Below, in pieces: positions 2,258 to 23,502 of a DNA stretch of 64,000 bases. The notes beneath the pieces were generated by a model that saw only the letters and a program-made list of their open reading frames with translations, ran no database searches and was not told where the DNA came from. Each line of letters starts with the position of its first letter. The stretch's first letter is position 1. A program made the translations under genes and the position numbers. This DNA is from Roseococcus sp. (lineage in GTDB: Bacteria; Pseudomonadota; Alphaproteobacteria; Acetobacterales; Acetobacteraceae), in the NCBI GenBank assembly GCA_026414745.1, contig JAOAIK010000040.1, forward strand, positions 1-64,000. Direction: 5' to 3'.

Positions 2258-3490
2258 CTATTCCGCCCGGTAGGCGAGACGGAACCCGCCCCAGTGGCGC
2301 CCGCGCACCAGGATGGGAGCGGAGCAGTCCTTCATCAGCGCCACCTGCCCGCCCCCCATGTCGCGGCGATAGGCCTGCAGCAGGAAGGGCTTGCGGTTGC
2401 GCGCCGCGCGCAACCCGGTGCGATCGTCGAAGATGCGGCGGTTGCGGCTGTTCGCGGCGTTCCAGGCCGTCTCGCCGGGGCGCTGAGGCTTGCTGAACAC
2501 AGCGTTGTGCGTCGGCAGATAGCCGTTCCGATCCACCGCCGCGGCGAACACGACGCGCGGGTCGAGGCCGAGCAGCGGCTCCTGCACGGCGGGCAGAAGC
2601 CGGTCCGTCAGCGTCGTGAACTGTGCCATCAGCTGCGGCGGATCGGTGCCGGGGATGGGCCGGTACGCCTCGTCGAAGAGCTCGGCCTCGGCGATCTCGC
2701 CGGCGGCGAGGGCGGCCTCCAACAGGCGTCCCACTTCGGCGGCGGCGGCCTGGGCGGCGCGGATGAAACGGGAATCCTCGGTCTCGACGCTGGCAGCCGC
2801 CATCTCCTCCATCAGCGCCTCGGAGATGTCGCGCAGCGTCTCGCCACGCTTGGCGGCCTGCGCCACCTACTGCGCCAGCACGGCGGTGGCACGCGCCTGG
2901 GCGGCGATGCCGGCGCGCATGGCGGCCGCCTCCTCGCCCGCCGCGGCGGCGCCGGCGGCCATGGCGGCCACCTCCTCGCCGGCGCGCTGCACGCTTTCCG
3001 CCAGCGCCCCGAGCGCGGCGCGGCTGGTGCGGGCGCCTTCGGCGGCGGCCTCGGCCTCGACGGCGTTGCGCTCCGCCGCCTCGCGCAGCGCCAGCGCGGC
3101 AGCCCGCAGCTCGTCCACCCCCCGCTCGATCCGGGCGGTGGCCGCGCGAGTCTCGCCGGCGAGCGCCTTCACCTCCTGCGCCGCCACGGCGAAGCCGCGC
3201 CCTGCCTCCCCGGCGCGCACGGCCTCGATGGTGGCGTTGAGCGCAAGCAGGTTGGTCTGCCGTGCGATGCGTTCGATCGCGCCGGCGATGCCGGCCACGG
3301 CCGAGAGGGCGGAATCCAGCGCGGCCAGGCGGCGCGCGGCGTCGCGCACTCCCTCGGCCACGCGCGCGGACTCGACTTCGGCGCGGGTTGCGGCGGCCTC
3401 GACCCCCGTCGCCTCCTCGCGCGCGGCGGCGAGCGCGGCCTCGGCCCGGGCCGCCCGCCAGCAGAGGCCGGGTGCGGGAGGCGCCGCTAG
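2258..3490 (-). pseudogene. Methyl-accepting chemotaxis protein remnant with in-frame TAG
   Basis: One continuous frame of about 411 codons encodes a soluble chemotaxis receptor but is interrupted by a TAG at 2869-2867. The upstream part holds the signalling hairpin tip ([16 protein letters not shown], then [15 protein letters not shown]), long Ala/Glu-rich coiled coils on both sides, and no membrane segment. After the stop the same frame continues as VAQAAKRGETLRD and ends in a domain with NGYLPTHN, PFLLQAYRRDMGGG and GRHWGGFR, motifs I associate with the C-terminal sensory module of many proteobacterial receptors. There is also no ATG/GTG upstream of codon GTG 3361; the open frame simply runs into the end of holA. 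Both lesions suggest a decaying gene. A single sequencing error could explain the TAG but not the missing start. Confidence 0.72.
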
Positions 3491-16337: not shown

Positions 16338-16831
16338 CGGAGACACTTCCGCCCGAGCTCGAGATCCCGGTTGCGATCCTGGCCGAGCGGCGGCCGGGCG
16401 CGACGCCCTGGCAGGAGCATGTGTGGCGCGCCGCCGCCGTGCTTGAGGAGGCGCCGCCCGTGCCGCCCTGGACGAAGCTGCGCGAGGAGGCCGGGCGCGA
16501 ACTTTTCTTCGCCGGCACGGCCCCGGTGCGGCTGCACCGGACGGACACGCCGAACTATCGCGAGAACCTGACGGCCGCCGCCCCGCGCCTCTGGGTGCTG
16601 CTGCGCGAAGCGGGGACGGGGATGGAACTGGCGGCGGTGACGGTGGACCCGGGCGAGGCCGAGGTGCTGGCCGAGGATCCGCGCGCGCTGCTCGAGGCGC
16701 TGCCCCTTCCGCCCGGTCTGCAGGCCCTGCTCGCGGCCTTCGTGGCGCAACACCACGTCGAGCGAGTGTTCCACAAGCGTCAACGCGACCGGCAGGATCC
16801 CGATTCGCTCGGGCGCAGGGGGCGGGTGTGA
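16334..16831 (+). CDS. DUF3305-family protein
   Basis: A 165-residue soluble protein, starting by a 4-bp ATGA overlap with DUF6352. Motifs typical of DUF3305 are visible: IPVAILAERRPGATPWQEHVWRA near the N-terminus and a C-terminal HHVERVFHKRQRDRQDP. Members sit upstream of formate dehydrogenase genes together with DUF3306; the biochemical role is not established. The basic C-terminus could bind nucleic acid or an acidic partner (speculative). Confidence 0.8.
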   Translation: MTETLPPELEIPVAILAERRPGATPWQEHVWRAAAVLEEAPPVPPWTKLREEAGRELFFAGTAPVRLHRTDTPNYRENLTAAAPRLWVLLREAGTGMELAAVTVDPGEAEVLAEDPRALLEALPLPPGLQALLAAFVAQHHVERVFHKRQRDRQDPDSLGRRGRV

Positions 16832-16912: not shown

Positions 16913-17620
16913 ATGCCCTCTGAGGGGTTTCTCTCCCGCTGGTCGCGGCGCAAGCGCGGCCTTGATCAGGGCGAGGAAGCGGCCGCGGCACCGCCCGCGG
17001 CGCCGCCTGCACCGGCCGCCGCCCCGGCTCCTCCGGCCGAGTCGCCCGCGCCGCGGCCCGCTTCATCGGCCGAAGGCGCGCCGCCTGCGGAGGCCGAGCC
17101 CGAGTTCGACCTGTCCAGCCTGCCGGACATCGACTCGATCACCGCCACCACGGACATCCGCGGCTTCTTCCACAAGGCGGTGCCGGAGGCGCTGCGGCAG
17201 GCGGCCCTGCGCAAGGCCTGGGCGACGGACCCGGTGATCAGCACCTACATGGGGCCGCTGGACTATGCCTGGGACTTCAACGCGCCGGGTGGCCTGCCCT
17301 TCGGCTTTTCCTCCGAACTGGGCGAGGTCGGGGAGGCGTTGCGTGACCTGATCGCCCAGGCGGTCGGCGAGCCACCGCCGCGGCCCGATGTCCGGGCGGA
17401 GGCCGGGCCCGGGGCCGCGCCGCAGGCCCTTGTCGCGGCCGACGATACTGCGCCGGAAGCGGAGACGGCCGCGGTCGATCCGCCTGTCGAACCCCCGCCC
17501 TCGCCTGTGCGCCCCGCCGCGGCGGAGCCGGACGCGGCGGATGTCGAGCCGAGCTCGGCGGAGGCCGCCGCGCCGGCCCCTCCGCCCCGCCGGCGCCACG
17601 GGGGCGCGGTTCCCATCTGA
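16913..17620 (+). CDS. DUF3306-family protein with Ala/Pro-rich arms
   Basis: A 235-residue protein. The family core is clear: N-terminal FLSRWSRRKRG, then after a 50-residue Ala/Pro linker DLSSLPDIDSITATTDIRGF, FHKAVPEALRQAALRKAW and STYMGPLDYAWDFN. A second Ala/Pro/Glu-rich tail of about 100 residues ends in RRRHGG. The low-complexity arms are probably disordered and lengthened by GC-rich drift. Separated from DUF3305 by 81 bp and from the chaperone gene by 132 bp. Function unknown; position implies work with formate dehydrogenase. Confidence 0.8.
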   Translation: MPSEGFLSRWSRRKRGLDQGEEAAAAPPAAPPAPAAAPAPPAESPAPRPASSAEGAPPAEAEPEFDLSSLPDIDSITATTDIRGFFHKAVPEALRQAALRKAWATDPVISTYMGPLDYAWDFNAPGGLPFGFSSELGEVGEALRDLIAQAVGEPPPRPDVRAEAGPGAAPQALVAADDTAPEAETAAVDPPVEPPPSPVRPAAAEPDAADVEPSSAEAAAPAPPPRRRHGGAVPI

Positions 17621-17657: not shown

Positions 17658-17741
17658 TGCAATCGCCTCTCACTTGCACATCCTGGACATTCCGACATCT
17701 TTTCGCCATGAGGAGTTGACGCGGGTGCAGTTTCTTTGCAC
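17658..17741 (+). promoter_or_regulatory. Two inverted TGCA-centred pairs before the HTH-TorD gene
   Basis: The 132-bp gap upstream of the chaperone gene holds four TGCA cores arranged as two inverted pairs: tgcaa-N11-ttgca (17658-17678) and gtgca-N7-tgcac (17725-17741). The second lies 11 bp before the ATG. A ttgacg at 17716-17721 could be a -35 element but no good -10 is seen at 16-18 bp. The arrangement looks like operator half-sites, possibly for the HTH domain of the adjacent protein. Base counting by eye; chance occurrence of a 4-bp core is not excluded. Confidence 0.4.
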
Positions 17742-17752
17742 GCTTCGCGTCA

Positions 17753-18532
17753 ATGAAACAGGAAGCGCAGGCTGGGGCGCTGGACGCCGCGATCGCTGCC
17801 GCCGGGGGGATGGAAGCCTTCCAGGCCGCCCTGGGTGTCGCGCGTCGCACTGTGTTCCTGTGGAAGCAGCAGGGCGTTCCGGCCGAGCGTGTGCCGGAAA
17901 TCGAGGCTGCGACCGGCGTGCCGCGCCACAAGCTTCGTCCTGACCTCTGGGCCCCTCCCGGCGCCGTGGCGGATCCGATGCGCGAGGGGCGGGCCAATCT
18001 CTACGCGCTTCTCGGTCATCTGCTGAGCGACGTGCCGGCCCAGGGGGTGCTGGCGCGCCTTGCGGCCCTGCCGGCCGACGATACGCCGCTCGGCGCCGCA
18101 CTGGGCGCGCTCTCGGCTGCGGCGCGGGTGGCGAAGCCCGAGGCGCTGGAACGCGAATATCACGCCCTGTTCATCGGCCTGGGGCGCGGCGAGCTGCTGC
18201 CCTACGCCTCCTACTATCTCACCGGCTTCCTGCACGAGCGCCCGCTTGCGGAGCTGCGCGCCGATCTCGGCCGCCTCGGCATCGCCCGGGCGGAGGGCGT
18301 GTGCGAGCCGGAGGACCACATCGCCTTCCTGTGCGAGGCGATGGCCGGGCTCTTGCGCGGCGGGACGCCGGACGAGGCGGACAGGCTGTTCGAGCGGCAT
18401 CTCCGCCCCTGGGCGGGACGTTTCTTCGCCGACCTCTGCGTGGCCGAGAGCGCGGTGTTCTACCGTGCCGTGGGCGGGCTGGGGCGGGCACTGATGGATG
18501 TGGAACTGGCGGCGGCGGAGCTGCCCGCCTGA
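17753..18532 (+). CDS. TorD-family chaperone fused to N-terminal YdaS/Cro-like HTH
   Basis: A 259-residue protein with two parts. Residues 9-66 read as a YdaS/Cro-type helix-turn-helix: LDAAIAAAGGMEAFQAALGV, then ARRTVFLWKQQGVPAERVPE and IEAATGVPRHKLRPDLW. Residues ~75-259 are an all-helical TorD/DmsD chaperone: EREYHALFIGLGRGELLPYAS and the EPEDHIAFLCEAM motif. TorD chaperones bind the Tat signal peptide of molybdoenzymes and hold them until cofactor insertion. Here the client is presumably FdhA, encoded 300 bp downstream. The fused HTH suggests DNA binding and possible autoregulation; this is inference. The first ATG is used; the HTH lies after it in the same uninterrupted frame, so the fusion is not a start-site artefact unless translation begins at Met76. 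Confidence 0.85.
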   Translation: MKQEAQAGALDAAIAAAGGMEAFQAALGVARRTVFLWKQQGVPAERVPEIEAATGVPRHKLRPDLWAPPGAVADPMREGRANLYALLGHLLSDVPAQGVLARLAALPADDTPLGAALGALSAAARVAKPEALEREYHALFIGLGRGELLPYASYYLTGFLHERPLAELRADLGRLGIARAEGVCEPEDHIAFLCEAMAGLLRGGTPDEADRLFERHLRPWAGRFFADLCVAESAVFYRAVGGLGRALMDVELAAAELPA

Positions 18533-18564: not shown

Positions 18565-18810
18565 ATGGCGAGCAAGGATGAAGCGGGCACCATCGGGGGC
18601 GCGAGCAGGCGCCGTGGCTTCCTGAAGACGCTGGGCATCGGCACGGCTGCGGCTGCGGCGGCGGCCTCGCCTGCTCTCGCGCAGCGTGCGGACAGCGTTC
18701 CCGCGCGCGAGGCCCGCAAGGAGAACGCCCAGCAGCGGGTGGCCGCCCGCTACCAGGCGAACTCTCCGCATGTGCAGAGCTTCTATCGCACCAACCGCTA
18801 CGAGTATTGA
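18565..18810 (+). CDS. Small Tat-targeted formate dehydrogenase-associated protein
   Basis: An 81-residue peptide with a twin-arginine signal (SRRRGFLKTLGIG, hydrophobic Ala run, then ASPALAQ) and a short mature part ending YRTNRYEY. It matches the small 'formate dehydrogenase region Tat target' proteins that precede fdhA in many proteobacteria. ATG at 18565 with gaaggag 6 bp upstream. No cofactor ligands are seen; it may be a small subunit or assembly partner exported with the enzyme. Only 22 bp separate it from fdhA. Confidence 0.88.
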   Translation: MASKDEAGTIGGASRRRGFLKTLGIGTAAAAAAASPALAQRADSVPAREARKENAQQRVAARYQANSPHVQSFYRTNRYEY

Positions 18811-18832: not shown

Positions 18833-21778
18833 ATGCTCATCAAGCGTTCCGACGGGGCCCGCGCGAAGCAGCGGCTTGCCTCGGCCTATCAGGGCCTCTC
18901 GGCTGGCGGCATGGACCGCCGCTCCTTCCTCAAGACGGCGGGCCTCGCCGGCGCCGGCGTGGCCGCTCTGGCCGGCATCGCGCCGCGCATGGCCGAGGCG
19001 GCCGGCGCGGCGACGGGCGTGCATGATCTCTCGCGCCCCATTCAGCGGGTGAAGAATCTCTGCACCCACTGCTCGGTGGGCTGCACCGTGACGGCCGAGG
19101 TGCAGAACGGCGTCTGGGTCGGCCAGGAGCCGACCTGGGAGAGCCCGATCAACCGCGGCACGCATTGCGCCAAGGGCGCCTCGGTGCGCGAGCTGGTGCA
19201 TGGCGATCGCCGCCTCAAGTATCCGATGAAGCTGGTGAACGGCCAGTGGCAGCGCATCAGCTGGGATGTCGCGATGAGCGAGATCGCCGATCGCATGATG
19301 GCGATCCGCCAGGCCTCCGGCCCTGACTCGATGTACTGGCTCGGCAGCGCCAAGTTCTCCAACGAGGGCGCCTATCTGTTCCGCAAGTTCGTCGCCTTCT
19401 GGGGCACGAACCATGTGGACCACCAGGCGCGCATCTGCCACTCGACCACGGTGGCGGGCGTGGCGAACACCTGGGGCTACGGTGCGCAGACCAACAGCTA
19501 CAACGACATCCGCAATTCCAAGACCATGATCATCATGGGCGGGAACCCGGCGGAGGCGCACCCGGTCTCGCTGCAGCACGTGCTCTCCGGCAAGGAGATC
19601 AACCGTGCGAACCTGATCGTGATCGACCCGCGCTACACCCGCACGGCCGCCCACGCGACGGAGTATGTCCGCATCCGCCCGGGCACGGACATCCCGGTGA
19701 TCTGGGGCATCCTCTGGCACATCTTCCAGAACGGCTGGGAGGACAAGGAGTTCATCCGCCAGCGGGTCTACGGCATGGACGAGATCCGCGCCGAGGTCGC
19801 GAAGTGGACGCCGCAGGAGGTCGAGCGCGTCTCGGGCGTGCCGGGCGCCCAGCTCCGCCGCGTGGCGGAGATGTTCGCGACCCAGAAGCCCTCGACGCTG
19901 ATCTGGTGCATGGGCACGACGCAGAAGACGGTGGGCACGGCGAATGTCCGCGCCTACTCGGTGCTGCTGCTCGCCACCGGCAATGTCGGCGCCGAGGGCA
20001 CGGGCGCGAACATCTTCCGCGGCCACTGCAACGTGCAGGGCGCCTCGGACTTCGGGCTCGATGTCGGCACGCTGCCGGCCTATTACGGCCTCGATGAGAC
20101 GGCCTGGCGCCACTGGAGCCGCGTCTGGGGCGTCTCCTTCGAGTCGATGCGCGCGCGCTTCGACACGCCGCAGATGATGCACACGCCGGGCATCCCCTCG
20201 ACGCGCTACATGGATGCCGTGCTGCTGCCGAAGGACCAGGTGCAGCAGCGCGACACCCTGAAGGGCATGATCGTCTTCGGCCACGGCGGCAACACCGTGA
20301 CCCGCATGCCGGAGGCGCAGCGCGCGCTCGACGCGCTCGATCTGCTGGTGGTCGCGGACCCGCACCCCACCACCTTCGCGGTGCTGCACAACCGGCGTGA
20401 CAACACCTATCTGCTGCCGATCGCCACCCAGTTCGAGTGCTCGGGCAGCCGCACCAGCTCCAACCGCTCGGTGCAGTGGGGCGAGAAGGTCGTGAACCCG
20501 ATCTTCGAGAGCCGCACCGACTACCGCGTGATGTATGATCTCGCCAAGGCGCTCGACGTGGCGGCGCAGCGGCGGAACATGACCATCCGCTTCGCGGAGG
20601 ACATGTTCAAGCACTACGACATCCAGAACGGCGAGCCGACGCCCGAGAGCATCCTGCGCGAGATCAACCGGGGCGCCTGGGGCACGGGCTACACGGGCAT
20701 CAGCCCCGAGCGTCTGAAGCTGCACATGCAGCACCAGGACAAGTTCGACCTGGTGACGCTGCGCGCGCGGCCGGACGCGCCGCCGGAAATCCGCGGCGAC
20801 TATTACGGCCTGCCCTGGCCCTGCTGGGGCACGCCGGAAATGCGCCACCCCGGCAGCCACATCCTGTACAACACCAACCTCGCGGTGAAGGATGGCGGCG
20901 GCACCTTCCGCCCGCGCTTCGGACTGGAGCGCAACGGCGTGACGCTGCTGGCCGAGGGCAGCTACTCGAAGGACAGCGACATCCGCGACGGCTACCCGGA
21001 GTTCACCGTGGCGCTGCTCAAGCGGCTCGGCTGGTATGACGAGCTCACGCCGGCCGAGAAGGCGACCATCGCGGAGATCGGTCAGGGCCTGGGCGGCGAG
21101 GACCGCGTGTCCTGGATGACGGACCTCTCGGGCGGCATCCAGCGCGTGGCCATCGCGCATGGCTGCTCGCCCTTCGGCAACGGCAAGGCCCGCGCGGTGG
21201 CCTGGAACCTGCCCGACCCCGTGCCGGTTCACCGCGAGCCGATCTACACGGCCCGTCCTGACCTGATCGCCCAGTATCCGACCCTGCCGGATCGCCGCGG
21301 CTTCCGCCTGCCGCATCTCGGCCAGTCGGTGCAGGCGCGCAGCCACGAGGTGTTCCGCAACTTCCCGATCATCCTCACCTCCGGCCGGCTGGTCGAGTAC
21401 GAGGGTGGCGGCGAGGAGACGCGCTCGAACAAGTGGCTCGCGGAACTCCAGCAGGACATGTTCGTGGAGATCAACCCGGCCGACGCCGCCGCGCGCAACA
21501 TCCGCGACGGCGCCTGGGTGTGGGTGACGGGCCCGGAGAACAACAGCCGCGCCCGGGTGAAGGCGCTGGTGACGGAGCGCGTGGGGCCGGGCGTGGCCTT
21601 CATGCCCTTCCACTTCGCCGGCTGGTTCATGGGCGAGGACCAGCGCCGCAAGTATCCGCAGGGCACCGACCCCGTGGTGCTCGGCGAATCGGTGAACGCC
21701 CTGACCACCTACGGCTACGACCCCGTCACCTTCATGCAGGAGACGAAGGTCACGCTCTGCCAGATCCGTGCCGCCTGA
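18833..21778 (+). CDS. fdhA: Formate dehydrogenase catalytic (alpha) subunit, Tat-exported
   Basis: A 981-residue molybdopterin oxidoreductase oxidising formate to CO2 on the periplasmic side. Tat signal DRRSFLKTAG (Arg29-Arg30). The [4Fe-4S] ligands are Cys77, Cys80, Cys84 and Cys112 (CTHCSVGC ... HCAKG). The metal ligand is Cys202 in ARICHSTTVAG, followed by the conserved His, so this is a cysteine, not selenocysteine, enzyme (codon TGC). MGGNPAEAHPV and IDPRYTRTAAHA are the bis-MGD binding stretches; a C-terminal molybdopterin dinucleotide-binding domain holds TSGRLVEYEGGGEETRS. Start ATG at 18833 has gggaggg upstream; frames further upstream belong to the Tat peptide gene. Length fits FdoG/FdnG-like enzymes. 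Confidence 0.96.
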   Translation: MLIKRSDGARAKQRLASAYQGLSAGGMDRRSFLKTAGLAGAGVAALAGIAPRMAEAAGAATGVHDLSRPIQRVKNLCTHCSVGCTVTAEVQNGVWVGQEPTWESPINRGTHCAKGASVRELVHGDRRLKYPMKLVNGQWQRISWDVAMSEIADRMMAIRQASGPDSMYWLGSAKFSNEGAYLFRKFVAFWGTNHVDHQARICHSTTVAGVANTWGYGAQTNSYNDIRNSKTMIIMGGNPAEAHPVSLQHVLSGKEINRANLIVIDPRYTRTAAHATEYVRIRPGTDIPVIWGILWHIFQNGWEDKEFIRQRVYGMDEIRAEVAKWTPQEVERVSGVPGAQLRRVAEMFATQKPSTLIWCMGTTQKTVGTANVRAYSVLLLATGNVGAEGTGANIFRGHCNVQGASDFGLDVGTLPAYYGLDETAWRHWSRVWGVSFESMRARFDTPQMMHTPGIPSTRYMDAVLLPKDQVQQRDTLKGMIVFGHGGNTVTRMPEAQRALDALDLLVVADPHPTTFAVLHNRRDNTYLLPIATQFECSGSRTSSNRSVQWGEKVVNPIFESRTDYRVMYDLAKALDVAAQRRNMTIRFAEDMFKHYDIQNGEPTPESILREINRGAWGTGYTGISPERLKLHMQHQDKFDLVTLRARPDAPPEIRGDYYGLPWPCWGTPEMRHPGSHILYNTNLAVKDGGGTFRPRFGLERNGVTLLAEGSYSKDSDIRDGYPEFTVALLKRLGWYDELTPAEKATIAEIGQGLGGEDRVSWMTDLSGGIQRVAIAHGCSPFGNGKARAVAWNLPDPVPVHREPIYTARPDLIAQYPTLPDRRGFRLPHLGQSVQARSHEVFRNFPIILTSGRLVEYEGGGEETRSNKWLAELQQDMFVEINPADAAARNIRDGAWVWVTGPENNSRARVKALVTERVGPGVAFMPFHFAGWFMGEDQRRKYPQGTDPVVLGESVNALTTYGYDPVTFMQETKVTLCQIRAA

Positions 21779-21793
21779 GGGAGGACCAGAACC

Positions 21794-22390
21794 ATGGCCC
21801 GCATGAAGTTCCTGTGCGACGCGGACCGCTGCATCGAGTGCAACGCCTGCGTCACGGCCTGCAAGAACGAGCACGAGGTGCCCTGGGGGATCAACCGCCG
21901 GCGTGTCGTCACCATCAATGACGGCAAGCCGGGCGAGCGGTCGATCTCCATGGCCTGCATGCACTGCACGGACGCGCCCTGTGCGGCTGTCTGCCCGGTG
22001 TCCTGCTTCTACACGACGGCGGACGCCATCGTGCTGCACGACAAGGACCTCTGCATCGGCTGCGGCTATTGCTTCTATGCCTGCCCCTTCGGCGCGCCGC
22101 AGTATCCGCGCGTCGGCAACTTCGGCGGCCGCGGCAAGATGGACAAGTGCACCTACTGCGCGGGCGGCCCGCAGCAGGACAACACCCGTGTCGAGTACAC
22201 GCAGTACGGCTCCAACCGGATTGCGGAGGGCAAGCTGCCTCTCTGCGCGGAGATGTGCTCGACCAAGGCGCTGCTGGCCGGCGATGGCGAGATGATCGCG
22301 ACCATCTATCGCGAGCGTGTGCAGCGCCGCGGCTACGGCTCGGGCGCCTGGGGCTGGCGGACGGCCTACCGCACCACGGTCAACGTCTGA
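21794..22390 (+). CDS. fdhB: Formate dehydrogenase Fe-S (beta) subunit
   Basis: A 198-residue electron-transfer subunit with four ferredoxin-type clusters: CIECNACVTAC, CMHCTDAPCAAVCP, CIGCGYCFYACPFG and the spread Cys set around CTYCAGG and CAEMC. It matches Fdh3B-type beta subunits, shorter than E. coli FdnH and without its C-terminal membrane anchor. Electrons pass from the molybdenum site of FdhA through these clusters to the cytochrome subunit. Starts 15 bp after fdhA; a strong hairpin follows it. Confidence 0.95.
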   Translation: MARMKFLCDADRCIECNACVTACKNEHEVPWGINRRRVVTINDGKPGERSISMACMHCTDAPCAAVCPVSCFYTTADAIVLHDKDLCIGCGYCFYACPFGAPQYPRVGNFGGRGKMDKCTYCAGGPQQDNTRVEYTQYGSNRIAEGKLPLCAEMCSTKALLAGDGEMIATIYRERVQRRGYGSGAWGWRTAYRTTVNV

Positions 22391-22509: not shown

Positions 22510-23502
22510 ATGCGGCGCATCCTTCTCGCACCCCTGATGGTGCTCTTCCTGGCGCTCTGCGCGCCCGGCATCGTCACGCAGGCCCAGGCGCAACCGGCGC
22601 GCGGCGCCATCTCGGCCGAGGAGCTCGAACTCCAGCGCATGCTCCAGGGCGGGCGCATCGAGGGGCGCACCACCCTGCCGGACGCGCAGTCCGAGGTGCT
22701 GATCCAGCCTGCCGGGAAGGCTTGGCGGGACTTCCACAACGTCACCCTTGCCTGGGTCGGCGGCATCGCCGTGGGCGGGATGCTCATCATCCTTGTCGCC
22801 TTCTATCTCGGGCGCGGGAAGATCATGGTGGAGGGCGGCCTGTCCGGGCGCACCATCCAGCGCTTCAACCTCCTCGAGCGCGCGAACCACTGGATGGTGG
22901 CCTCCTGCTTCATCGTGTTGGGGCTGACGGGGCTCAACCTCACCTTCGGCCGGCATCTGCTGCTGCCGATCGTGGGGGCCGAGACCTTCACCGCCATCTC
23001 GCTCTGGGGCAAGGTGCTGCACAACTATCTCGCCTTCCCCTTCACGCTCGGCATCGTGCTGATGCTGCTGCTCTGGGTGAAGGACAACATCCCGAATGGC
23101 CGCGACATCGAGTGGTTCAAGCAGGGCGGCGGGCTGATCGGGAAGGGCCATCCCAAGGCCGGGCGCTTCAACGCCGGCCAGAAGATGGTGTTCTGGATCA
23201 CCACGCTGGGCGGCGCGGCGGTGGCCATCTCGGGCTACATGCTCATTTTCCCCTTCTGGGGCGAGTTCGGCGTGGCCGAGATGCAGCTGGCGCACATCGT
23301 CCACTCCGTCATCTCGGTGCTGATGATCGCGGCGATGCTCGCGCACATCTACATCGGCTCCATCGGCATGCAGGGCGCCTTCGACGCCATGGGCACCGGC
23401 GAGGTGGACCTCAACTGGGCGAAGGAGCACCATGCCCTCTGGGTCGAGGAGCAGCAGAAGCGCGAGACCGCGGCCCGGCCCGCCGCGCAGCCCGCGGAGT
23501 GA
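22510..23502 (+). CDS. fdhC: Formate dehydrogenase cytochrome b (gamma) subunit
   Basis: A 330-residue membrane anchor. It starts with a signal peptide or first helix (MRRILLAPLMVLFLALCAPG, then QAQAQP), a periplasmic stretch of ~75 residues, then helices near VTLAWVGGIAVGGMLIILVAF, ANHWMVASCFIVLGLTG, HNYLAFPFTLGIVLMLLLW, FWITTLGGAAVAISGYML and HSVISVLMIAAMLAHIYIG. The His residues in ERANHW, VLHNY, HIVHS and LAHIY are candidates for the two haem b ligand pairs. Role: pass electrons from FdhB to quinone in the inner membrane. Longer at the N-terminus than E. coli FdnI, as in many Fdh3-type gamma subunits. Confidence 0.92.
   Translation: MRRILLAPLMVLFLALCAPGIVTQAQAQPARGAISAEELELQRMLQGGRIEGRTTLPDAQSEVLIQPAGKAWRDFHNVTLAWVGGIAVGGMLIILVAFYLGRGKIMVEGGLSGRTIQRFNLLERANHWMVASCFIVLGLTGLNLTFGRHLLLPIVGAETFTAISLWGKVLHNYLAFPFTLGIVLMLLLWVKDNIPNGRDIEWFKQGGGLIGKGHPKAGRFNAGQKMVFWITTLGGAAVAISGYMLIFPFWGEFGVAEMQLAHIVHSVISVLMIAAMLAHIYIGSIGMQGAFDAMGTGEVDLNWAKEHHALWVEEQQKRETAARPAAQPAE

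What the first reader, a model, noticed from the sequence alone, without database searches (positions are those of the whole stretch)
17753..18532. TorD chaperone fused to a YdaS/Cro-like DNA-binding domain
Seen: one uninterrupted 259-codon frame with an HTH-like segment (residues ~9-66, ending HKLRPDLW as YdaS-type proteins often do) joined to a TorD/DmsD chaperone domain. Known: TorD chaperones bind the Tat signal of an apo-molybdoenzyme. Inference: the protein could read the amount of unfilled FdhA (or its signal peptide) and adjust transcription of the formate dehydrogenase genes, linking cofactor insertion to expression. I do not know of a described regulator of this design, though fused homologues may already sit in databases under the TorD name.
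Basis: partly seen in the sequence, partly recalled or inferred. Interest (0 to 1): 0.78.

Follow-up and report, generated by a model that had tools for sequence, protein, structure and literature searches.

The report
Formate-dehydrogenase chaperone with built-in DNA-binding switch
The chaperone that helps a bacterium assemble its formate dehydrogenase carries a phage-like DNA-binding domain, and a matching DNA target sits in its own operon's promoter region in nearly all fused relatives examined but rarely in unfused ones, so the assembly helper probably also controls the genes of the enzyme it assembles.

Summary
ORF 17753-18532 fuses a YdaS/Cro-type HTH (PF15943, 48 bits, cut-off 30) to a TorD/DmsD chaperone domain. 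HTH dN/dS is below that of the TorD half in 13 of 13 pairs; the model shows a Cro-like and a DmsD-like fold.

Beyond the finding, I located the probable operator. A 17-bp palindrome GTGCA-N7-TGCAC (17725-17741) lies between a -35-like TTGACG and the start codon, kept in 13 of 13 group loci with at most 1 mismatch. Other fusions (Hyphomicrobiales where named) carry a different half-site with the same geometry: ATAR-N7-YTAT in 77 of 78 fused loci against 5 of 128 unfused. Stricter forms were fixed before two further sets were fetched: 5 of 5 and 48 of 56 fused, 0 of 7 and 0 of 35 unfused. One recognition-helix residue tracks one operator base. fdhA follows in 91 of 94 fused loci; the other 3 end at contig borders.

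Best reading: a self-regulating chaperone, BirA-like in design, probably an autorepressor of the fdh operon. Gating by apo-FdhA or its Tat signal is plausible but untested. Ten literature searches listed no such protein.

The parts
17753..18532 (+). HTH-TorD fusion protein, 259 aa
17780..17953 (+). YdaS/Cro-type HTH domain, residues 10-67
   Evidence: PF15943 48 bits, cut-off 30; 3bd1 fold match
17843..17872 (+). Recognition helix, residues 31-40 (RRTVFLWKQQ); T33 is the position whose residue tracks an operator base in the other fused group
   Evidence: AF2 helix 31-40; residue/half-site table; helix role inferred from HTH topology
17978..18529 (+). TorD/DmsD chaperone domain, residues 76-259, with EPEDH at residues 185-189 (18305-18319)
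   Evidence: PF02613 110 bits; P186, E187, D188, H189 invariant in 13 of 13
17725..17741 (.). Candidate operator GTGCA-GTTTCTT-TGCAC, 17-bp palindrome
   Evidence: at most 1 mismatch in 13 of 13 group loci, 0 of 89 unfused loci
17716..17721 (+). -35-like TTGACG just upstream of the operator
   Evidence: read in the sequence; TTGAC in front of the operator in the aligned group; the strict promoter scan found no complete sigma-70 match
17739..17744 (+). Tentative -10 (CACGCT), 17 nt after the -35-like hexamer and overlapping the right operator arm
   Evidence: inference from spacing only; weak match; one search found no promoter
18565..18810 (+). Small twin-arginine protein of the fdh region, 81 aa
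   Evidence: translation
18833..21778 (+). FdhA, molybdopterin formate dehydrogenase alpha subunit with Tat motif RRSFLK; presumed chaperone client
   Evidence: PF00384, PF01568, PF04879; sequence
21794..22390 (+). FdhB, 4Fe-4S subunit
22510..23502 (+). Cytochrome b561-type gamma subunit (start uncertain)
   Evidence: PF01292
23432..24019 (+). MobB; same-operon membership presumed from spacing
   Evidence: PF03205
24029..25264 (+). MoeA; same-operon membership presumed from spacing
16913..17620 (+). DUF3306 protein, upstream neighbour
   Evidence: PF11748; a DUF3306 hit lies in 93 of 94 fused loci (its position there was not tested)

Best explanation
A bifunctional, self-regulating maturation chaperone. 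The N-terminal Cro-like HTH binds, presumably as a dimer, the 17-bp palindrome 17725-17741 in the promoter of its own presumed operon (HTH-TorD, small Tat protein, fdhABC, mobB, moeA) and in the window most likely represses it, because the site overlaps the promoter. The TorD half is the chaperone of FdhA. The likely design is that of biotin protein ligase BirA: free chaperone shuts the operon, while client-occupied chaperone (bound to apo-FdhA or its Tat signal) is diverted from DNA, so expression follows assembly demand. Shown by sequence comparison: the fusion, selection on the HTH, an operator that accompanies the fusion, matching change of helix and half-site, fdh context in every testable locus. 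Inferred: binding itself (my estimate 0.93), repression in the window (0.75), gating by client (0.5).
For: Operator: GTGCA-N7-TGCAC with at most 1 mismatch upstream of 13 of 13 group-A fused loci and 0 of 89 unfused loci (after removing 5 fused duplicates from the controls). Group B: exact ATAG-N7-CTAT in 21 of 21 (L013 set aside, it lacks it) and 0 of 93 unfused. Tests with the motif fixed beforehand: 5 of 5 fused, 0 of 7 unfused; 48 of 56 fused, 0 of 35 unfused (44 of 52 after dropping 4 loci with TorD domains identical to earlier ones). Seven of those 8 misses and L013 carry the one-base variant ATAA or a hybrid; only L206 lacks it, giving 77 of 78 for ATAR-N7-YTAT against 5 of 128 unfused. 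Specificity: helix residue A goes with ATAA/TTAT in 6 of 8, S or T with ATAG/CTAT in 68 of 70. Arms 7 bp apart are shared by both half-site types. In the window's genome exact GTGCA-N7-TGCAC occurs 3 times; of the two others one lies inside a 505-aa frame and one spans the stop of a frame and a following ATG. HTH dN/dS is below TorD dN/dS in 13 of 13 pairs, though in L037/L046 pN itself is higher in the HTH. fdhA follows on the same strand in 91 of 94 loci, the rest cut by contig ends. In G060 an exact group-B site, with a second palindrome read by eye beside it, precedes an ABC operon with a PBP_like_2 binding protein. The same HTH fused to pyruvate kinase has its own CTTA-N7-TAAG site starting 23-24 bp before the ATG in 3 of 3 distinct cases.
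Against: No binding or expression data. The sequences are related: on well-supported branches only 5 independent fused/unfused contrasts exist, about 4.7 agreeing and 0 opposing, median p 0.0625. No complete sigma-70 promoter is found in the window. In one clade (e.g. L116, L170, L172) the site lies 5' of a TTGAC box, which fits activation as well. Class C fusions (L118-L120) lack the A and B operators apart from one 1-mismatch A match in L119 that is probably chance. L206 lacks the site, L013 lacks the strict form. Exact palindromes of either type also occur elsewhere and in genomes without the fusion, 0-6 per genome, so a site alone proves nothing. Nothing tested touches client sensing.
Confidence: 0.62

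Rival explanations
1. Plain dosage autoregulation: the HTH-TorD represses its own operon at a set protein level, and the TorD half works independently as chaperone with no client signal. (Odds of the rivals overlap; they are not exclusive of each other.)
For: Everything that supports autoregulation holds equally; nothing tested shows coupling. Linker length varies between relatives.
Against: The fusion arose or was lost repeatedly (at least 4 supported changes), each testable case beside fdhA; an HTH alone would serve mere dosage control. This is an argument, not a test.
Confidence: 0.28
2. Activator: the protein switches the fdh operon on, with the site used from upstream of the -35 in some clades.
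For: In L114, L116, L170, L172 and a number of loci of the second set the palindrome lies just 5' of a TTGAC box.
Against: In the window the palindrome lies between TTGAC and the start codon, 11 bp before ATG; in L036, L117, L171 the right arm merges with a -10-like TATGCT/TATACT/TATAAT. Promoters are read by eye, not mapped.
Confidence: 0.12
3. The palindrome is the target of another regulator, and the HTH has a different role.
For: A second inverted repeat upstream in the group (e.g. L006, GAGAATGCTTCGCATTCTC) shows that other regulators may act here; 4 related Roseomonas MAGs with unfused TorD have an ATAA-N7-TTAT sequence.
Against: Strict motifs are absent from 128 of 128 unfused loci and present in 77 of 88 fused, including unfused paralogues in the same genus; half-site base follows recognition-helix residue.
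Confidence: 0.05
4. The HTH is a degenerate phage remnant without function, or translation starts at Met76.
For: YdaS is known as the Cro equivalent of a cryptic prophage (PMC5917428, passages).
Against: Purifying selection on the HTH, retention across many genera, confident HTH fold.
Confidence: 0.02

Closest known systems
Group II biotin protein ligase BirA
   Same: N-terminal DNA-binding HTH on a protein ligase, controlling genes of its pathway; group I ligases lack the domain, as unfused TorD does (PMC4016012, abstract)
   Different: Different HTH and different partner domain; BirA uses a small-molecule corepressor (recalled); no cofactor requirement is known here
TorD(fdh)/DmsD(fdh) chaperones of the NarJ subfamily
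   Same: Same chaperone family, operons with fdh genes, DUF3305/DUF3306 and a small Tat gene (PMC4464133, passages)
   Different: Described without a DNA-binding domain: the words helix-turn-helix, DNA-binding, fusion and fused do not occur in that paper's main text
YdaS / Xfaso1 Cro phage regulators
   Same: Same HTH fold and family; YdaS regarded as the Cro equivalent (PMC5917428, PMC9986795, passages)
   Different: Stand-alone phage proteins; here fused to a chaperone and tied to a metabolic operon
PutA, a proline-catabolic enzyme with DNA-binding domain (recalled, no call)
   Same: Enzyme and autorepressor in one chain
   Different: Ribbon-helix-helix, redox/membrane switch
YdaS HTH-CcdA antitoxins in relatives (L025, L028)
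   Same: Same HTH module N-terminal to a partner-binding domain
   Different: Antitoxin rather than chaperone; no 5-N7-5 site found upstream

Membership tests
YdaS/Cro-type HTH (PF15943) | Profile score over the curated cut-off | tested here: met
   48 bits vs 30; 13 of 13 aligned members, the window's included, match the family at E 0.001 or better
YdaS/Cro-type HTH (PF15943) | Five-helix Cro-like fold | tested here: met
   AF2 model and 3bd1 match, 1.1-1.2 A over about 60 columns, probability 1.00, E 0.17-0.37
YdaS/Cro-type HTH (PF15943) | Binds a palindromic operator | not testable with these tools
   A 17-bp palindrome accompanies the fusion; binding itself not measured
TorD/DmsD (NarJ subfamily) chaperone | PF02613 profile | tested here: met
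   110 bits vs 22.2; the narrower NCBIfam DmsD and TorD equivalog models stay below their cut-offs
TorD/DmsD (NarJ subfamily) chaperone | EP(E)DH motif (motif recalled) | tested here: met
   EPEDH at residues 185-189; P186, E187, D188, H189 invariant in 13 of 13
TorD/DmsD (NarJ subfamily) chaperone | Beside a Tat-exported molybdoenzyme | tested here: met
   fdhA with Tat motif downstream in the window; fdhA downstream in 91 of 94 fused loci, 3 cut by contig ends
TorD/DmsD (NarJ subfamily) chaperone | Binds Tat signal / apo-enzyme | not testable with these tools
   needs biochemistry
BirA-like client-gated repressor (works like) | HTH fused to client-handling domain plus operator-like site at own pathway's promoter | tested here: met
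   sequence evidence only
BirA-like client-gated repressor (works like) | Client competes with DNA binding | not testable with these tools
   inference only
Biotin protein ligase family itself | Biotin/lipoyl ligase domain in the protein | tested here: not met
   no such Pfam match in the protein up to E 1: an analogue, not a member

The most novel reading that the evidence does not exclude
A molybdoenzyme maturation chaperone that is itself a transcription factor: the Tat signal of unfinished formate dehydrogenase is the inducer, so the cell reads its backlog of unassembled enzyme directly at the promoter. More widely, Alphaproteobacteria repeatedly wire household proteins (TorD, pyruvate kinase, perhaps the NAD(P)H-hydrate repair enzyme) to their own promoters by adding an N-terminal YdaS/Cro domain and a matching 17-bp operator.
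Probability: 0.45. Interest if true: 0.88.

Novelty: new variant of a known kind. Interest (0 to 1): 0.78.

Why it matters
How bacteria match the synthesis of complex metalloenzymes to their assembly capacity is largely open (my judgement). Here chaperone and regulator are one molecule, with a defined 17-bp candidate target, natural fused and unfused pairs, and a helix residue that predicts an operator base, so the coupling can be tested directly. The fusion is common in one large-genome genus (76 of 85 genomes that have the chaperone, 117 searched) and would easily pass in annotation as an ordinary TorD. The same HTH on pyruvate kinase with its own palindrome hints at a general trick.

Tried and rejected
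Stand-alone HTH beside unfused TorD genes: none found by tblastn at E 1e-3 in the stretches held for 93 unfused loci. Fusion outside the class: in 299 genomes of the phylum 41 matched, and every match outside the class begins at profile position 56 or later, so 0 fused there. Genome-wide regulon in the window's genome: no second intergenic target found. Second palindrome GAGAATGCTTCGCATTCTC in the group: a Fur-like box by recall only; 2 to 5 strand matches per genome at up to 3 mismatches in 6 genomes, neighbours not examined, and the window's own copy is too degenerate to match. PDB search by VIA-align was not available. Class C operator: L119/L120 share a long inverted repeat with an 11-nt centre, not proven. 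A phylogenetically corrected test did not reach significance with the available independent contrasts. Met76 start and chance ORF were rejected by codon-level selection. In one search five fused loci (L031-L035, copies of or near group A) were wrongly placed among controls; I removed them, so the control for that count is 89. Five loci with TorD domains identical to others were dropped. Control windows reach 300 bp or 460 bp upstream of the TorD-domain hit, two of them shorter (L051 242, L084 282); fused windows reach 200-260 bp upstream of the start or HTH, and the same 460 bp as controls. Ten literature searches listed no paper on such a fusion; several listings were capped (e.g. 25 of 44 papers, 15 of 51, 15 of 30), and the library holds only open-licence PMC papers.

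Full report
1. What is there. The frame 17753-18532 encodes 259 aa. Residues 10-67 match Pfam YdaS_toxin PF15943 with 48 bits (cut-off 30) and residues 108-226 match PF02613, the TorD/NarJ family, with 110 bits (cut-off 22.2). NCBIfam agrees more weakly: DmsD and TorD models, and the carph-isopro HTH domain, all below cut-off. The AF2 model from 13 sequences has mean pLDDT 82.9, with residues 11-60 at 85-94 and a weak stretch around 144-161. Foldseek finds YcdY and DmsD for the chaperone part, and Xfaso1 Cro (3bd1, 1.1-1.2 A, about 60 columns) for the HTH, the latter with probability 1.00 but E-values of 0.17-0.37 because it covers a quarter of the query. phmmer with residues 1-72 gives 3bd1 E 3.9e-6.

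2. The HTH is translated and selected. Between the window and L002 (95% identical protein) the 58 compared HTH codons have pN 0.000 and pS 0.391. In 13 of 13 compared pairs HTH dN/dS is below that of the TorD part; in the closest case, L037/L046 (0.068 vs 0.082), pN itself is higher in the HTH (0.027 vs 0.014).

3. Distribution. Same genus: 13 of 21 genomes (G000 included) carry the chaperone, all 13 with the HTH, two of them cut short (G002, G018). Class sample: 59 of 385 genomes match; 10 have the full fusion, one more begins at profile position 18. Phylum sample: 41 of 299 match, 0 fused outside the class. In the genus of G561, 85 of 117 genomes match and 76 of these have a fused copy; in the family of G224, 42 of 119 match and 31 are fused. 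A tree of 130 TorD domains needs 11 changes between fused and unfused, at least 4 on supported branches; 12 on 216 rows. So the HTH was gained or lost several times. Named carriers include Rubritepida, Roseococcus, Chelatococcus, Mesorhizobium and Phreatobacter.

4. Context. In the window, downstream on the same strand come a small Tat protein, fdhA (Tat motif RRSFLK), fdhB, a cytochrome b561, mobB and moeA. fdhA follows the fusion on the same strand in 91 of 94 fused loci; the three others (L008, L009, L017) end within 170 bp of the gene. A DUF3306 hit lies in 93 of 94 (position not tested). The 94 include four near-duplicates. The window's genome shows no second match to the fusion protein and no second YdaS domain at E 1e-4.

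5. The operator. Aligning upstream regions of the window's group showed a conserved block amid drifting surroundings: TTGAC, then GTGCA-N7-TGCAC, then the start codon. The palindrome is exact in 12 of 13 group-A loci and has one mismatch in the other (L017); in the window it is 17725-17741. In other fused loci a different palindrome with the same 5-7-5 layout appeared: CATAG-N7-CTATG, at most 1 mismatch in 14 of 17, with a mean of 0.03 in 100 single-base shuffles. Unfused loci: 0 of 89 for either motif at that stringency (94 listed, 5 were fused duplicates).

6. Tests with motifs fixed beforehand. Five fused loci fetched later: 5 of 5 (CATAG-N7-CTATG, at most 1 mismatch); seven unfused: 0 of 7. 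Then 56 fused loci: 48 with exact ATAG-N7-CTAT, and 35 unfused: 0, among them unfused paralogues from the same genus and in some cases the same genome. Four of the 56 have TorD domains identical to earlier loci; without them it is 44 of 52.

7. The misses explain themselves, all but one. Of the eight, L231, L232, L234, L236 and L237 carry ATAA-N7-TTAT and L220 and L221 the hybrid ATAG-N7-TTAT; L013 of the first set carries ATAA too. With the widened core ATAR-N7-YTAT, chosen after seeing these, 77 of 78 fused loci match (only L206 lacks it) and 5 of 128 unfused; four of those five are Roseomonas MAGs with near-identical sites. The residue after QP in the recognition helix, window T33, follows the half-site: alanine with ATAA/TTAT in 6 of 8 (one hybrid, one ATAG), serine or threonine with ATAG/CTAT in 68 of 70 (one hybrid, one none). 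The window group, with ARRTVFLW instead of SQPSVSxW, has GTGCA. This is what one expects if the fused HTH itself reads the site. Relatedness inflates all these counts: supported independent contrasts number 5, about 4.7 with and 0 against, median p 0.0625.

8. Where the site lies. In the window it fills the space between TTGAC and the start codon, 11 bp before ATG; in L036, L117 and L171 it lies between TTG-type and TAT-type hexamers 16 nt apart (read by eye). That favours repression. In L114, L116, L170, L172 and a number of loci of the second set it lies 5' of a TTGAC box, which is also compatible with activation. The strict scan saw no complete promoter in the window, so promoter placement is inference.

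9. Possible regulon. Exact GTGCA-N7-TGCAC occurs 1 to 5 times per genome in 14 genomes, 7 with and 7 without the fusion. In the window's genome the other two sites lie in or across reading frames. Exact CATAG-N7-CTATG occurs 0 to 6 times in 16 genomes, also in ones without the fusion, against 0 to 2 for the reversed control pattern. In G060 an exact site at L181:3174, with a second palindrome GATAG-N7-CTATC read by eye next to it, precedes a gene row whose ATPase and PBP_like_2 binding protein match Pfam; the presumed permease frame matched nothing (a tungstate/molybdate transporter is a guess by recall). G070 has a second exact site at the 3' end of a MobA-like gene. The other extra sites were not examined.

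10. Mechanism. [quoted passage not shown] By analogy the client would compete with operator binding. This last step is inference. TorD is reported to bind the Tat signal of TorA (PMC10609526, passages).

11. Novelty. The broad NarJ-subfamily survey describes TorD and DmsD in fdh operons with DUF3305/DUF3306 but its main text does not contain the words helix-turn-helix, DNA-binding, fusion or fused (PMC4464133, passages). Ten literature searches, some with capped listings, listed no description. Each part is known; the combination with its operator code is, as far as searched, not described.

12. A wider pattern. The same HTH is fused to pyruvate kinase (L026, L029, L296), to NAD(P)H-hydrate epimerase/dehydratase (L020) and to CcdA antitoxin (L025, L028). 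Of six loci given to five match the pyruvate kinase fusion, being three distinct cases; L295 does not. All 3 have CTTA-N7-TAAG starting 23-24 bp before the ATG, two of them a second copy further up. CcdA fusions showed no 5-N7-5 site; L020 showed one 5-N7-5 palindrome (CACAA/TTGTG) 76 bp up, significance unknown.

Noticed in passing
L026:259-1893 (-), L029:64-1722 (-), L296: YdaS HTH fused N-terminally to pyruvate kinase, with a CTTA-N7-TAAG palindrome starting 23-24 bp before ATG in 3 of 3 distinct cases: a second possible self-regulating enzyme of the same design.
   Followed up: partly
L020:1-1719 (-): YdaS HTH fused to bifunctional NAD(P)H-hydrate epimerase/dehydratase (PF03853 + PF01256); one 5-N7-5 palindrome 76 bp upstream.
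   Followed up: partly
L025:1486-1872 (+), L028:1489-1911 (+): YdaS HTH fused to CcdA antitoxin; no 5-N7-5 palindrome upstream.
   Followed up: partly
window about 17658-17678; exact in G006 at C1:801572-801590 and G016 at C1:326176-326194: A second inverted repeat upstream of the group's operator, GAGAATGCTTCGCATTCTC in relatives, degenerate in the window; resembles a Fur-type box by recall.
   Followed up: partly
L181:3174-3190 and about 3233-3249: Operator-like sites (one exact, one read by eye) in front of an ABC gene row with a PBP_like_2 binding protein, 8 kb from the G060 HTH-TorD promoter: possible second target.
   Followed up: partly
L119, L120 upstream of the fusion: A third HTH class with its own long inverted repeat, AAATCTTGCAA-N11-TTGCAAGATTT in L120, with paired changes in L119.
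   Followed up: partly
L042, L049, L058, L059 upstream of unfused torD: Roseomonas MAGs share CATAACGG(G/T)(C/T)CATTATT although their TorD has no HTH; chance, shared descent or a relic of a lost HTH.
   Followed up: no
window 16367-16780 (DUF3305) and 16913-17620 (DUF3306): Uncharacterised gene pair beside the fdh operon; a DUF3306 hit lies in 93 of 94 fused loci.
   Followed up: no
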